Program-made: the position numbers and the translations under genes
The notes under the pieces: model-generated
The model's database searches: none
What the model was told of the DNA's origin: nothing
Seen by the model: the letters and a program-made list of their open reading frames with translations, nothing else
Shown here: piece by piece, positions 25,764-30,962 of the stretch
Numbering within the stretch: position 1 is the first letter of the stretch
Layout of the letters: each line of letters starts with the position of its first letter
Source of the DNA: Mycobacterium paraseoulense
GTDB taxonomy: Bacteria > Actinomycetota > Actinomycetes > Mycobacteriales > Mycobacteriaceae
Direction of reading: 5' to 3'
Assembly (NCBI RefSeq): GCF_010731655.1
Contig: NZ_AP022619.1
Coordinates: 62,001 to 126,000, forward strand
DNA length: 64,000 nt

Positions 25764-25806
25764 CGGCGCCCACCGCGCGATATCCTCGAGGTCGGAGGTG
25801 ACCAAC

Positions 25807-28197
25807 GTGGCGGACGAGAAGAGCGCGGCGCAGGCGCTTGACGCGCCCACCGACGCCGGCGACGCCCTGCTGGTCGGGGAGCCGGTCACGGCGCAGGCCG
25901 AGCCGCCGGAGCCGCCGACGGAGACGCTGAAGGTCCCCAGCAGCGCGTCTCGCCGGGTCCGGGCCCGGCTGGCCCGGCGGATGACCGCCCAGCGCACCAC
26001 GCTCAACCCGGTGCTGGAACCGCTCGTGGCGGTGCACCGGGAGTTCTACCCGAAGGCGAACCTGTCGTTGCTGCAGCGCGCCTACGAGGTTGCCGACCAG
26101 CGGCACGCCACGCAGTTGCGCCATTCCGGCGATCCTTACATCACCCACCCCCTGGCGGTCGCGAACATCCTCGCCGAATTGGGCATGGACACCACCACTT
26201 TGGTGGCCGCGCTGTTGCACGACACCATCGAGGACACCGGTTACACGCTCGAGGCGTTGAGCGAGGAGTTCGGCGAGGAGGTGGGTCACCTCGTCGACGG
26301 CGTGACCAAGCTGGACCGGGTGGTGCTGGGCACCGCCGCCGAGGGCGAGACCATCCGCAAGATGATCACCGCGATGGCCCGCGACCCCCGGGTGCTGGTG
26401 ATCAAGGTCGCCGACCGGCTGCACAACATGCGCACCATGCGCTTCCTGCCGCCGGAAAAGCAGGCCCGCAAGGCCCGCGAGACACTGGAAGTCATTGCGC
26501 CCCTTGCGCATCGGCTGGGCATGGCCAGCGTCAAGTGGGAGCTGGAAGACCTGTCCTTCGCAATCCTGCACCCCAAGAAGTACGAGGAGATCGTCCGGCT
26601 GGTCGCCGGCCGCGCGCCGTCGAGGGACACCTACCTGGCGAAGGTCCGCGCGGAGATCATCAACACCCTCAACGCGTCGAAGATCAAGGCGACGGTGGAG
26701 GGCCGCCCCAAGCACTACTGGTCGATCTATCAGAAGATGATCGTCAAGGGTCGCGACTTCGACGACATCCACGACCTGGTCGGCATCCGCATCCTGTGCG
26801 ACGAGATCCGGGACTGTTACGCCGCGGTCGGCGTGGTGCATTCGCTGTGGCAGCCGATGGCCGGGCGGTTCAAGGACTACATCGCCCAGCCCAGATACGG
26901 TGTCTACCAGTCGCTGCACACCACCGTGGTCGGGCCGGAGGGCAAGCCGCTGGAAATCCAGATCCGCACCCGGGACATGCATCGCACCGCCGAATACGGC
27001 ATCGCGGCACACTGGCGCTACAAGGAAGCCAAGGGGCGCAACGGCGTTCCGCATCCGCACGCCGCCGCCGAGATCGACGACATGGCCTGGATGCGTCAGC
27101 TGCTCGACTGGCAGCGGGAGGCCGCCGACCCGGGCGAGTTCCTGGAGTCGTTGCGCTACGACCTTGCGGTGCAAGAGATCTTCGTGTTCACCCCGAAAGG
27201 TGACGTCATCACCCTGCCCAACGGGTCGACGCCCGTGGACTTCGCCTACGCGGTGCACACCGAGGTCGGCCACCGGTGCATCGGCGCCAGGGTCAACGGG
27301 CGGCTGGTTGCGCTGGAGCGCAAGCTGGAAAACGGCGAAGTCGTCGAGGTTTTCACGTCGAAGGCGCCCAACGCCGGCCCGTCGCGCGACTGGCAGCAGT
27401 TCGTGGTGTCGCCGCGCGCCAAGGCGAAGATCCGGCAGTGGTTCGCCAAGGAGCGCCGTGAGGAGGCGCTGGAGACCGGCAAGGAGGCGATGGCCCGCGA
27501 GGTGCGCCGCGGCGGGCTTCCCTTGCAGCGCTTGGTCAATGGCGAGTCGATGGCCGCGGTGGCCCGCGAACTGCACTACGCGGACGTGTCCGCGCTCTAC
27601 ACCGCGATCGGCGAGGGCCATGTGTCGGCGCGCCATGTCGTGCAGCGGCTGCTGGCCGAGCTCGGCGGAATCGACCAAGCCGAAGAGGATCTCGCCGAGC
27701 GGTCCACACCGACGACCATGCTGCGGCGCCCGCGCAGCAGCGACGACGTCGGGGTCTCGGTCCCCGGCGCCCCGGGCGTGCTGTCCAAGCTGGCCAAGTG
27801 CTGCACCCCGGTGCCCGGCGATGCGATCATGGGGTTCGTCACCCGCGGCGGGGGTGTGAGCGTGCACCGCACCGACTGCACCAACGCCGCGTCGCTGCAG
27901 CAGCAGTCCGAGCGCATCATCGAAGTGCATTGGGCGCCGTCGCCGTCGTCGGTGTTCCTGGTGGCCATCCAGGTCGAGGCGCTCGACCGGCACCGGCTGC
28001 TCTCCGACGTCACCCGGGTGCTGGCCGACGAGAAGGTCAACATCCTGTCGGCGTCGGTCACCACATCCAATGACCGGGTGGCGATCAGCCGGTTCACCTT
28101 CGAGATGGGTGACCCCAAGCACCTCGGGCATCTGCTCAACGTGGTGCGCAACGTCGAGGGCGTCTTCGACGTCTACCGCGTGACGTCGGCGGCTTAA
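25807..28197 (+). CDS. rel: Bifunctional (p)ppGpp synthetase/hydrolase Rel
   Basis: The 796-residue enzyme makes and degrades the stringent-response alarmone (p)ppGpp. It has an intact hydrolase HD domain (His138-Asp139 in LLHDTIEDT), the synthetase domain ([26 protein letters not shown]), a TGS domain ([18 protein letters not shown]), a zinc-finger region with adjacent cysteines (KCCTPVPGD) and a C-terminal ACT domain. GTG 25807 is chosen because GGAGGTGA just upstream is its ribosome site; the in-frame GTG at 25798 is part of that site. It follows apt by 43 bases. Confidence 0.97.
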
Positions 28198-28215: not shown

Positions 28216-29985
28216 CTAGCCGACGCGGACCGAGGTGATGGTGACCGGGTTGGTGGGGGCGCCACTCTGACGATTGCCGGCGATGCCCGCCTGGGCGATC
28301 TTGTCGAGAACCGCCAGGCCCGCCTCGTTGATGGTGCCGAATACCGTGCTCTGGGGCGCCAATTCCGAATCCCGGAAGATCAGCGAGAACTGGCTGCCGT
28401 TGGTGTTGGGTCCGTCGGTGGCCATGATCACGGTGCCGCGGGGGTACATCACGGTGGCCCGAAGGGCGGGATCCCCGGCCGGGTACTGGTTGGTGGGGTA
28501 TTCGTCGGCGAACTGGTAGCCGGGGCCACCGGAGCCGTCGGATTCCGGACCGCCGCACAGCAGCGACCCCCCATCGGTGGAGTCGATCAGGCGCGCGCAC
28601 TGGGTGTTGTCGAAGAACTGCTGCTTCGCCAGGCTGACGAAGCTGTTGACCGTGCATGGCGATTCGGAGTTGGCGAGCTGAACACCGATGTCACCGAAGT
28701 TGGTGGTGATGGTGGCCGGGATCTGCGGCGGCTCGGTCGACACCCTGCCCGACCGGGGCGGGCTGACGGGCTTGACGATGGTGTCGGGCGCGCTCGGATA
28801 GTCGCAGTTTGCGCCCGGATCCGCCGGCGGAGCGAACGCCGGTAGCGGCGGGACCGTCGCCGTCGCCTGGGCCGTCGGCCCGGGATTGGACCCGAGCCTG
28901 CCCGGCACCCGCGCGCGCGTCGGGGTGCTCGACGCCGCGCTGTTGGTGGGGCCGTCGTTCTCGGTGACCAGCGCGATGACCAACGCCACCACCGCGGCCA
29001 GCGCCAGGGCCGACGCGCCGACGATGCCCAGCAGCAGGCGCCGGGAGTGCGTGGGCGGGTGATACGGCGGCCGCGGATCGGGATTGGCGCCCGTCGGGGG
29101 GAAGTCCGGTGTGGGTGACGCGGCGGTCGGTGGCGGCGGTGGGGGCCCCGGCGCCGCGGCTGCCGCCGGGACGGCCAATGCCGCCCGGGCGGCTTCGGCG
29201 AGTTCCATCGCCGACTGGTAGCGGTGGTCGGGATCTTTGGCCATGCCACGGGCGACCACCGCATCGAGGGCCGCGGGCACCCCGGCTGACGTCGTCGACG
29301 GTCGCGGCGGCGGGGTGTTCAGGTGTGCGTTGAGTTGTTCCTCGAGGCTGTCGCCGGCATAGGGCCGCTTGCCGGTCAGACACTCGTGCAGCACGCAGGC
29401 CAACGAATACACGTCGGCGCGGTGATCCGTCGTGCCCCTGAACCGCTCGGGTGCCATGTAGGCGACGGTGCCCATCGTGTGCCCGGTCTGCGTGAGCGAG
29501 GTGTCCGCCATGGCGCGGGCGATGCCGAAGTCGATCAGGTAGACGAAGTCACGCGCGTTGGTGACCAAGATGTTCTTCGGCTTGATGTCGCGGTGGATGA
29601 GGCCCACCTGGTGTGCGCTGTCCAGCGCCGCGGCGACCTGTTCGATCACCGCGACGGCGCGCTCGGGGGACAGCCGCCCGCCGTTCTCCTCGATGTACTG
29701 CAGCAGGTCGCGGCCCTCGATGAGCCGCATGTCGACGTAGAGCCGTCCGTCGATCTCGCCGTAACTGTGGATGGGCACCACGTGCGGATCGTTGAGGCTT
29801 GCCGCTATGCGCGCCTCGCGGCGGAATCGTTGCTGAAACTGTTGATCCTCGGCCAAGTTCGGGGGCAGCACCTTCAGGGCGACGACCCGATCGGTCGCGG
29901 CGTCGTAGGCGCGATACACCTCTCCCATCCCGCCGCGCCCCAGGACGTCCAGCAATTGGTATTGCCCGAAAGACTGTGACCCCAC
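28216..29985 (-). CDS. Receptor Ser/Thr protein kinase fused to an extracytoplasmic cyclophilin domain
   Basis: This 589-residue fusion has a cytosolic kinase (about 1-270) with GRGGMGEVY (16-24), Lys38 in VALKV, HRDIKPKN (131-138) and DFG (152-154), all intact. A Pro/Ala-rich linker (about 272-314) leads to one membrane helix (about 317-340), a Ser/Thr/Pro linker, and a cyclophilin-like domain (about 380-589). From VPPLPAF at 378 onward it closely resembles the neighbouring PpiB, linker included. In the cyclophilin site the usual Gln is Leu476 and the Phe of GSQFF is Ser534, while Arg465 and Gln532 are kept, so isomerase activity may be weak and binding more likely. It is transcribed from its own start, 77 bases past the ppiB stop. 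No kinase is recalled here in M. tuberculosis. Confidence 0.92.
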   Translation of the reverse strand: MGSQSFGQYQLLDVLGRGGMGEVYRAYDAATDRVVALKVLPPNLAEDQQFQQRFRREARIAASLNDPHVVPIHSYGEIDGRLYVDMRLIEGRDLLQYIEENGGRLSPERAVAVIEQVAAALDSAHQVGLIHRDIKPKNILVTNARDFVYLIDFGIARAMADTSLTQTGHTMGTVAYMAPERFRGTTDHRADVYSLACVLHECLTGKRPYAGDSLEEQLNAHLNTPPPRPSTTSAGVPAALDAVVARGMAKDPDHRYQSAMELAEAARAALAVPAAAAAPGPPPPPPTAASPTPDFPPTGANPDPRPPYHPPTHSRRLLLGIVGASALALAAVVALVIALVTENDGPTNSAASSTPTRARVPGRLGSNPGPTAQATATVPPLPAFAPPADPGANCDYPSAPDTIVKPVSPPRSGRVSTEPPQIPATITTNFGDIGVQLANSESPCTVNSFVSLAKQQFFDNTQCARLIDSTDGGSLLCGGPESDGSGGPGYQFADEYPTNQYPAGDPALRATVMYPRGTVIMATDGPNTNGSQFSLIFRDSELAPQSTVFGTINEAGLAVLDKIAQAGIAGNRQSGAPTNPVTITSVRVG

Positions 29986-30062
29986 GCCACGACCTTAAGC
30001 GGTGCACCGCCCGCAGGCCGCGCGATTCTCACCAAACCGGGGCTGCGTTGCGCGGCTTGGCT

Positions 30063-30962
30063 TTAGTCGAGCAGCAGCGACGTGATGGTGACGTCGGAAG
30101 CCGGTGCGCTGTCCTCACCGCCGCCGGCGACGCCGGCCTTGGCGATCTTGTCCAGCGTGGCCAGCCCGTCGGGCTGGATGGTGCCGAAGACCGTGTATTG
30201 GGGCGGCAGCTGGGAGTCCTTGTACACCATGAAGAACTGGCTGCCGTTGGTCCCGGGCCCGGCGTTGGCCATCGCCAGGGTGCCGCGCGGGTAGAGCACG
30301 GGCTGTTGGGCCTTCGGGTCGTTCGGCGGGTACTGGTCGGTCGGGTACTCGTTGGCGAATTGGTACCCCGGACCGCCGGTGCCGTCGCCCTTGGGGTCAC
30401 CGCACTGCAGCACGCCCAGGTCCGGCGATGTGGTCAGCCGGTGGCATTTGGTGTTGTCGAAATATTTCTGGCCGATCAGGCTCGCGAAACTGTTTACCGT
30501 GCAAGGTGATTCGTTGTTGGCGAGCATCAGCCCGATGCGGCCCTGGTTGGTCACCATGCTGGCGCTCACTTGGGCCGGGTCGGTCGGCACCTTGCCGGTG
30601 CGCGGCGGCTTGACCTGCTTGGCCGCCGGTTCCGGTGACGCCGGGTACTGGCAGTTGGCGCCCAGGTCGGCCGACGGCTTGAACGCCGGCAACGGCGGAA
30701 CGGGCGGCGTCGGTCCGGCGGGCGTGGTGGTCTCGGGGGAGCTGCTGGCCGCGGAGGAGGTGGAGCTCGCGGCGCTGTTGCTCTTGTGCTCGTGTTTGTT
30801 GTTGATCACGGCGAGCACCACCGCGACGACCACGGCCACGGCCACGATCGAGCCGGCGGCGATCACCACGATCCGGCGCATCTTGGCTTGCTTCGCGCGG
30901 CGCTCCAGTTGCCGTTCGAGCTTGCGCTTGGCGTTGGCACGTCGTTGTTCATTGGTCGGCAC
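30063..30962 (-). CDS. ppiB: Membrane-anchored cyclophilin-type peptidyl-prolyl isomerase
   Basis: The 299-residue protein has a basic, coiled N-terminus (residues 1-29), one membrane helix (about 30-52), a Ser/Thr/Pro linker, and an extracytoplasmic cyclophilin domain (about 115-299). Site residues are present: the His-Arg pair in KCHRL, the Gln in VLQCGD and the two Phe of NGSQFF; the human Trp121 and His126 positions are not conserved. It should catalyse proline isomerisation in the periplasm-like space. The kinase-fused copy lies immediately downstream on the same strand. Rv2582 is the counterpart. Confidence 0.93.
   Translation of the reverse strand: MPTNEQRRANAKRKLERQLERRAKQAKMRRIVVIAAGSIVAVAVVVAVVLAVINNKHEHKSNSAASSTSSAASSSPETTTPAGPTPPVPPLPAFKPSADLGANCQYPASPEPAAKQVKPPRTGKVPTDPAQVSASMVTNQGRIGLMLANNESPCTVNSFASLIGQKYFDNTKCHRLTTSPDLGVLQCGDPKGDGTGGPGYQFANEYPTDQYPPNDPKAQQPVLYPRGTLAMANAGPGTNGSQFFMVYKDSQLPPQYTVFGTIQPDGLATLDKIAKAGVAGGGEDSAPASDVTITSLLLD

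What the first reader, a model, noticed from the sequence alone, without database searches (positions are those of the whole stretch)
28216..30962. Receptor kinase whose sensor domain is a cyclophilin copied from the neighbouring ppiB
The kinase gene encodes an intact cytosolic Ser/Thr kinase, one membrane helix and an external cyclophilin domain. From VPPLPAF onward it aligns with PpiB, encoded directly upstream, linker included. In the fused copy the usual active-site Gln is Leu476 and a site Phe is Ser534, whereas PpiB keeps both. This suggests duplication of ppiB, capture of its outer half by a kinase, and drift from isomerase to binding sensor, perhaps of proline-containing peptides or unfolded exported proteins. 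Mycobacterial receptor kinases have varied sensors, but I know of none with a cyclophilin.
Basis: partly seen in the sequence, partly recalled or inferred. Interest (0 to 1): 0.9.

Follow-up and report, generated by a model that had tools for sequence, protein, structure and literature searches.

The report
Kinase with a retired prolyl-isomerase sensor
A mycobacterial membrane kinase carries on its outer side a prolyl-isomerase fold whose catalytic pocket has changed beyond that of the enzyme, probably so that it now senses rather than catalyses; the domain layout was already reported in 2005.

Summary
Gene 28216-29985(-) encodes an intact-looking Ser/Thr kinase, one membrane helix and a C-terminal cyclophilin, 77 bp downstream of ppiB and convergent with relA. 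It is no assembly error: kinase and cyclophilin share one frame in at least 57 of 392 genus genomes. The architecture is not new: Krupa & Srinivasan (2005) listed it in M. avium subsp. paratuberculosis and thought it assists folding.

What the tools add: (1) The catalytic set R55/Q63/Q111/F113/Y126 is intact in 101 of 101 stand-alone PpiB-type domains of the genus but in 9 of 77 fused ones; there the pocket changes fast while the rest stays constrained. (2) The fused domain is not a recent copy of its present neighbour: it belongs to an older clade, and the slot after ppiB holds other cyclophilins (lipoprotein, DUF4190, one helix) in other genomes. (3) Fused domains arose at least twice: in L040/L089 a kinase is joined to a whole PpiB (cyclophilin 95-96% identical to the window's, pocket intact). 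(4) Nine of 46 fusion loci carry two tandem kinases with different pockets.

Best reading: a folded pseudo-isomerase sensor controlling a Hanks-type kinase. Ligand and activity are untested.

The parts
28216..29985 (-). receptor Ser/Thr kinase with outer cyclophilin domain (589 aa, GTG start)
   Evidence: one-frame fusion in 57 of 392 genus genomes
29176..29967 (-). kinase domain (about residues 7-270), catalytic K38, E57, HRD131-133, N138, DFG152-154, APE178-180
   Evidence: E57, HRD, K135, N138, DFG and PE the same in 55 of 55 aligned rows, K38 in 54 with one gap (rows = window plus 54 of the 120 listed database hits)
28963..29040 (-). membrane helix (residues 316-341)
   Evidence: helix in the AlphaFold2 model, low confidence there; hydrophobic run in the translation
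28858..28962 (-). outer linker, Ala/Thr/Pro-rich (residues 342-376)
28219..28857 (-). outer cyclophilin domain with its N-terminal extension from ATVPPLPAF (residues 377-589)
   Evidence: model pLDDT 94.4; best solved match M. tuberculosis PpiA 1w74
28558..28560 (-). Leu476, at the catalytic Gln63 position (CypA numbering)
28384..28386 (-). Ser534, at the pocket Phe113 position (CypA numbering)
29986..30062 (-). 77-bp gap between ppiB stop and kinase start; same strand, probably one transcript (inferred)
   Evidence: ppiB is the cyclophilin frame directly upstream in 44 of 46 fusion loci
30063..30962 (-). ppiB, membrane-anchored cyclophilin with intact catalytic set
25798..28197 (+). relA-type gene (name recalled), convergent; usual downstream neighbour of the ppiB-kinase pair
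   Evidence: present in 45 of 46 fusion loci

Best explanation
A Hanks-type receptor kinase of mycobacteria whose outer domain is a pseudo-isomerase: a cyclophilin of the PpiB family that keeps its fold but has lost its catalytic residues. Shown: architecture, single frame, conserved kinase catalytic residues, predicted cyclophilin fold, loss of the catalytic set, fast change concentrated in the pocket, position beside ppiB. Inferred: the altered pocket binds a ligand on the outer face of the membrane (a proline-bearing segment of an exported or envelope protein, or a cell-wall peptide); binding changes pairing of the receptors and so autophosphorylation, as thought for other mycobacterial receptor kinases (recalled). 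PpiB beside it serves the same compartment as enzyme and chaperone. The kinase probably took over the outer domain of a second cyclophilin that already sat in the slot after ppiB.
For: Catalytic set intact in 101 of 101 stand-alone domains of the genus and 9 of 77 fused ones. In the tree the six fused rows outside the main clade of 30 all keep the set and none of the 30 does. None of the 120 listed database homologues keeps it, including M. avium subsp. hominissuis P0053 (R-L-Q-A-S), though that list is the top of 1102 hits to a pocket-lost query and so is biased. Pocket sites change more slowly than the rest in slow-grower PpiB (median rate 0.10 vs 0.49, p 0.036) but faster in pocket-lost fusions (1.43 vs 0.70, p 0.024; 13 sites, 56 rows each). 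Pocket dN/dS 0.07 in PpiB, 0.29 in fusions; rest 0.12 and 0.18, so the domain is kept. Kinase residues conserved. Cyclophilin fold pLDDT 94.4, best PDB match PpiA 1w74. Tandem kinases differ in the pocket at all nine loci. M. tuberculosis PpiB is reported active, chaperone-like and oligomeric, as a GST fusion (PMC4794191, passages).
Against: No ligand and no activity data. Pocket dN/dS is below 1 (0.29), so the data show loosened constraint, not proven selection for new binding. Nine fused domains keep the full catalytic set. Arg55 (67 of 77) and Gln111 (75 of 77) are mostly kept, so weak activity cannot be ruled out. Stand-alone cyclophilins outside the genus can lose residues too (28 of 30 outgroup rows keep the set; L158 has two that do not). 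In L058 (M. asiaticum), L103 and L104 the kinase next to ppiB has no cyclophilin, so the domain is dispensable there.
Confidence: 0.6

Rival explanations
1. The outer domain is still a folding helper (isomerase or holdase chaperone) that is only tethered to a kinase, as proposed in 2005.
For: Krupa & Srinivasan suggest folding assistance (passages). Nine fused domains keep the catalytic set. M. tuberculosis PpiB binds non-native proteins (passages).
Against: 68 of 77 fused domains, the window's included, have lost residues that all 101 stand-alone copies of the genus keep. Constraint on the pocket is inverted.
Confidence: 0.15
2. The cyclophilin fold is a pairing or docking module: it holds kinases together, with each other or with PpiB, and the pocket is no longer used.
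For: PpiB of M. tuberculosis is reported oligomeric, measured as a GST fusion; ppiB is directly upstream in 44 of 46 fusion loci; the pocket loses constraint while the rest largely keeps it.
Against: Pocket residues differ by clade (a Q63-to-L line against an F113-to-N line), which plain neglect does not need; no interaction data.
Confidence: 0.2
3. Decay: the fusion is drifting and will be lost.
For: Some loci have the parts in different frames (L035, L053, L084, L085, L097) or a kinase without cyclophilin (L058, L103, L104).
Against: dN/dS 0.18 over the domain outside the pocket, intact kinase residues, 57 of 392 genomes with an open fusion.
Confidence: 0.05
4. Assembly error or frameshift joining two genes.
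For: None found.
Against: Same in-frame fusion in 57 of 392 genus genomes and listed from another genome in 2005.
Confidence: 0.005

Closest known systems
Kinase + TM + peptidyl-prolyl isomerase protein of M. avium subsp. paratuberculosis (gi 41407147; Krupa & Srinivasan 2005, PMC1262709)
   Same: Same domain order. The database homologue from M. avium subsp. hominissuis (P0053) matches the window's outer domain at 74%. Very probably the same family.
   Different: The paper says that among the mycobacteria then sequenced only M. avium has it, and suggests folding assistance. The passages I read do not mention pocket loss, the ppiB slot, tandem copies or repeated fusion. The gi record itself was not fetched.
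PknE-type receptor kinase
   Same: Closest solved kinase domain (2h34, 314 bits). PknE also has a foldase-like outer domain (recalled); a kinase with a Thioredoxin_4 outer domain is in this genome (L115; not tested as PknE's orthologue).
   Different: Different fold outside; L115 lies on another branch of the kinase tree.
Mycobacterial PpiB (Rv2582 type)
   Same: 60% identity over 204 aa, same four cysteines, same membrane orientation expected.
   Different: No kinase; a charged N-terminus and its own helix; catalytic set kept in 84 of 84 first-slot copies.
DUF4190 and lipoprotein-like cyclophilins in the slot after ppiB
   Same: Same place in the genome and same outer domain family.
   Different: No kinase; catalytic set intact in 17 of 17 second-slot stand-alone copies of the genus.

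Membership tests
Hanks-type receptor Ser/Thr kinase | Kinase domain above the Pfam cut-off with catalytic K, E, HRD, N, DFG | tested here: met
Hanks-type receptor Ser/Thr kinase | One membrane helix and an outer C-terminal domain | tested here: inconclusive
   hydrophobic helix 316-341 in sequence and low-confidence model; topology inferred, no topology program run
Hanks-type receptor Ser/Thr kinase | Kinase activity | not testable with these tools
   -
Cyclophilin-type prolyl isomerase | Cyclophilin fold and Pfam PF00160 above cut-off | tested here: met
   75.5 bits against 21.7; model and PDB matches
Cyclophilin-type prolyl isomerase | Catalytic residues R55, Q63, Q111, F113, H/Y126 | tested here: not met
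   window: R, L, Q, S, S
Cyclophilin-type prolyl isomerase | Isomerase activity | not testable with these tools
   -
Kinase-TM-prolyl isomerase protein of Krupa & Srinivasan 2005 | N-terminal kinase, central membrane segment, C-terminal Pro_isomerase domain | tested here: met
   (membrane segment by sequence and model only)
PknE | Thioredoxin-like outer domain (recalled) | tested here: not met
   outer domain is PF00160; the Thioredoxin_4 kinase is another gene, L115
StpK7 (NF052427) | Score over the curated cut-off | tested here: not met
   442.3 bits against 900; match covers residues 1-278 only

The most novel reading that the evidence does not exclude
The slot after ppiB is an evolutionary workshop for envelope receptors: one outer cyclophilin is shown on the membrane by exchangeable anchors (lipoprotein, DUF4190, single helix, kinase), kinases have taken it over at least twice, and in the main kinase line the pocket was released from catalysis and diversified into different ligand-binding sites in tandem receptors, so that non-tuberculous mycobacteria have a family of proline- or unfolded-protein-sensing kinases that M. 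tuberculosis lacks.
Probability: 0.35. Interest if true: 0.72.

Novelty: new member of a known kind. Interest (0 to 1): 0.5.

Why it matters
The signals of many mycobacterial receptor kinases are unknown (recalled). Here the sensor has an enzyme of known reaction as a close relative next door, versions with intact and with lost catalytic residues exist in the same genus, and tandem copies differ in the pocket. That makes ligand finding unusually direct and gives a clear case of an enzyme becoming a receptor. Together with the thioredoxin-type kinases it suggests that receptor kinases of this group have recruited envelope foldases as sensors more than once.

Tried and rejected
Assembly error: rejected (57 of 392 genomes). 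Recent copy of the present neighbour: rejected for the window by the tree. One origin of all fused domains: holding all 37 fused rows of a 99-row tree together was rejected (p-AU 0.005), holding 35 without L040_F1 and L089_F1 was not (p-AU 0.66); the groups were chosen after seeing the first tree, so these p values are lenient. Descent of the main fused rows from a second-slot cyclophilin: compatible (p-AU 0.54), not proven. Positive selection on the pocket: not shown, dN/dS 0.29. Fusions outside the genus: of the order-level matches (298 genomes, best 150 matches listed) I fetched 13 long open frames from outside the genus; none scored as kinase. Frames under about 455 aa and unlisted matches were not looked at. 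The table was wrong for loci L005-L033 (wrong ORF taken in some) and was replaced.

Not in the 57: eight genomes with 67-69% matches that were not fetched (G256, G051, G326, G249, G134, G201, G059, G248), and five whose parts are split over frames or cut by contig ends (G100, G038, G062, G010, G097). In the 77 fused domains, seven have no kinase score in their own frame (frame break or contig end) and were counted as fused by similarity. Two pairs among the 46 loci are the same sequence twice (L054/L087, L057/L186). Cyclophilin tree: of 192 distinct rows, 16 named rows (distant outgroups, fragments, L036's second copy) and near-identical rows of the same type (over 88%) were dropped, leaving 112; loci L001-L033 and L109-L152 were not used. 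Kinase tree: 44 rows; one weak kinase of this genome (L124) fell below the threshold.

Full report
OBSERVATION. The gene at 28216-29985(-) and ppiB at 30063-30962(-) are as described. The kinase protein has Pkinase and Pro_isomerase domains well over their cut-offs, and its tail aligns with PpiB at 60% over 204 residues without a gap. Leu476 and Ser534 are confirmed. The genome is a single 6.09-Mb contig with three cyclophilin matches: a PpiA-like one, PpiB and this kinase.

SPREAD. The cyclophilin part was searched in 392 genomes of the genus; loci were fetched. In 57 of the 392 I found kinase and cyclophilin in one open frame (27, the rest). This is a lower bound. Named carriers include M. 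scrofulaceum, M. nebraskense, M. colombiense, M. avium subsp. hominissuis, M. malmoense, M. lentiflavum and M. triplex. M. tuberculosis is described as having two cyclophilins, PpiA and PpiB (PMC4794191, passages), from which I infer that it lacks the fusion; I did not search a named M. tuberculosis genome. In 298 genomes of the order, no kinase was found on the 13 long cyclophilin frames from outside the genus that I fetched.

LOCUS. Of 46 loci with a fusion in one frame, 44 have ppiB as the cyclophilin frame directly upstream on the same strand, one (L085) has a broken first copy in between, and one (L039) is cut by its contig end; 35 are ppiB-kinase and 9 ppiB-kinase-kinase. Two pairs of the 46 are the same sequence twice. 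In L084, one of the nine, the first kinase is split over two frames. The relA-type gene is found in 45 and the metallo-hydrolase in 44 of the 46 loci, both in 43.

POCKET. In CypA numbering, R55, Q63, Q111, F113 and Y126 are all present in 84 of 84 first-slot and 17 of 17 second-slot stand-alone copies of the genus, in 28 of 30 outgroup rows, and in 9 of 77 distinct fused domains. Position 63 is Leu in 50 of 77; position 113 is Phe in 19 of 77. Two lines of change are visible: the line that includes the window has lost Q63 and mostly Y126; most second tandem copies keep Q63 but have Asn or Asp at 113, often Pro at 102, and often no R55. In the tree, pocket loss matches the main fused clade: none of its 30 rows keeps the set, and all six fused rows outside it do. 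Site rates agree that the pocket went from a slow to a fast part. Pairwise dN/dS is 0.29 in the pocket and 0.18 in the rest of pocket-lost fusions, against 0.07 and 0.12 in slow-grower PpiB (29 and 31 pairs): the domain is under purifying selection, and the pocket value below 1 is no proof of positive selection.

STRUCTURE. The outer domain is predicted with high confidence as a cyclophilin, nearest in the PDB to M. tuberculosis PpiA (1w74, TM-score 0.63 by query and 0.77 by target length). The full-length model says little about domain arrangement (pTM 0.51). Kinase catalytic residues are conserved in 55 aligned rows, apart from one gap at K38.

ORIGIN. A tree of 112 cyclophilin domains (quick search, SH-aLRT only) puts 30 of 36 fused rows, the window's included, in one clade (100), apart from the slow-grower PpiB group. 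Holding 35 fused rows as one clade is not rejected; adding L040_F1 and L089_F1 is. In L040 the kinase is followed by a whole PpiB: charged cytosolic segment, helix, linker and cyclophilin, 79% identical over 298 residues to the window's PpiB frame; L089 shows the same layout by eye. Their cyclophilins are 95.2% and 96.2% identical to the window's PpiB. This is an independent and later fusion, or replacement of the sensor by gene conversion; I cannot tell these apart. The slot after ppiB holds stand-alone cyclophilins in other genomes, with a lipoprotein-like signal (seen by eye: L063, L166, L055, L108 and others), DUF4190 (Pfam: L060, L172, L174) or one helix (L190, by eye). The simplest history is that a kinase replaced the anchor of such a second cyclophilin; the tree allows this (p-AU 0.54) but does not prove it. 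In the kinase tree the rows from this locus lie apart from 14 of the 15 other kinases of the genome (the 15th was not in it), support 78; L058 and L103, which have no cyclophilin, lie inside the locus group.

LITERATURE. Searches brought up one report of the architecture: PMC1262709 (listing and passages). In those searches I saw no report of the pocket loss, the second-slot anchors or repeated fusion; one search returned nothing at all, and most subscription journals are not held.

MECHANISM. Inferred: the domain binds a ligand outside without turning it over, and controls the kinase by pairing. The relation to other foldase-derived sensors is suggestive: this genome also has a kinase with a Thioredoxin_4 outer domain (L115), and the 2005 paper remarks on an M. 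tuberculosis kinase with a DsbA-like domain next to its M. avium prolyl-isomerase kinase.

VERDICT. A real, conserved receptor family of known architecture. The interest lies in the change from enzyme to apparent receptor and in its repeated origin at one locus.

Noticed in passing
L058:6781-7977, L103:2172-3395, L104:2210-3412: Kinase gene directly after ppiB with no cyclophilin score; in L058 and L103 it ends in a short Ser/Thr-rich tail after the helix.
   Followed up: partly
L172, L174, L060 (slot 2): The second cyclophilin after ppiB carries an N-terminal DUF4190 domain; other fast-grower-type loci look alike by eye.
   Followed up: partly
L055, L108, L063, L158, L159, L161, L162, L166 (slot 2): Second cyclophilin appears to be a lipoprotein (signal and lipobox-like Cys read by eye).
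   Followed up: no
window 28219-28857 and 30063-30962: Four cysteines are shared by PpiB and fused domains (84 of 84, 17 of 17 and 69 of 77 rows); two of them lie beside the R55 and Q63 positions, so a disulfide near the pocket is possible.
   Followed up: partly
L036:3652-6612: In Mycobacterium sp. 4858 kinase and cyclophilin pieces occur on both strands, like an inverted duplication or a misassembly.
   Followed up: no
L035, L053/L188, L084, L085, L097: Kinase and cyclophilin parts, or the kinase itself, lie in different frames: broken genes or sequencing errors. Described only.
   Followed up: no
L029 and L100 (G271): One genome has its fusion and a PpiB-like gene on different contigs; neither usual neighbour was seen within the 9 kb fetched around the latter.
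   Followed up: no
L158 (G651): Four cyclophilin frames in a row in a same-family genome outside the genus; two of the four lack the full catalytic set.
   Followed up: no
L111 (own genome C1:4508348): Another kinase of this genome has a periplasmic-binding-protein-like domain (PF01497).
   Followed up: no
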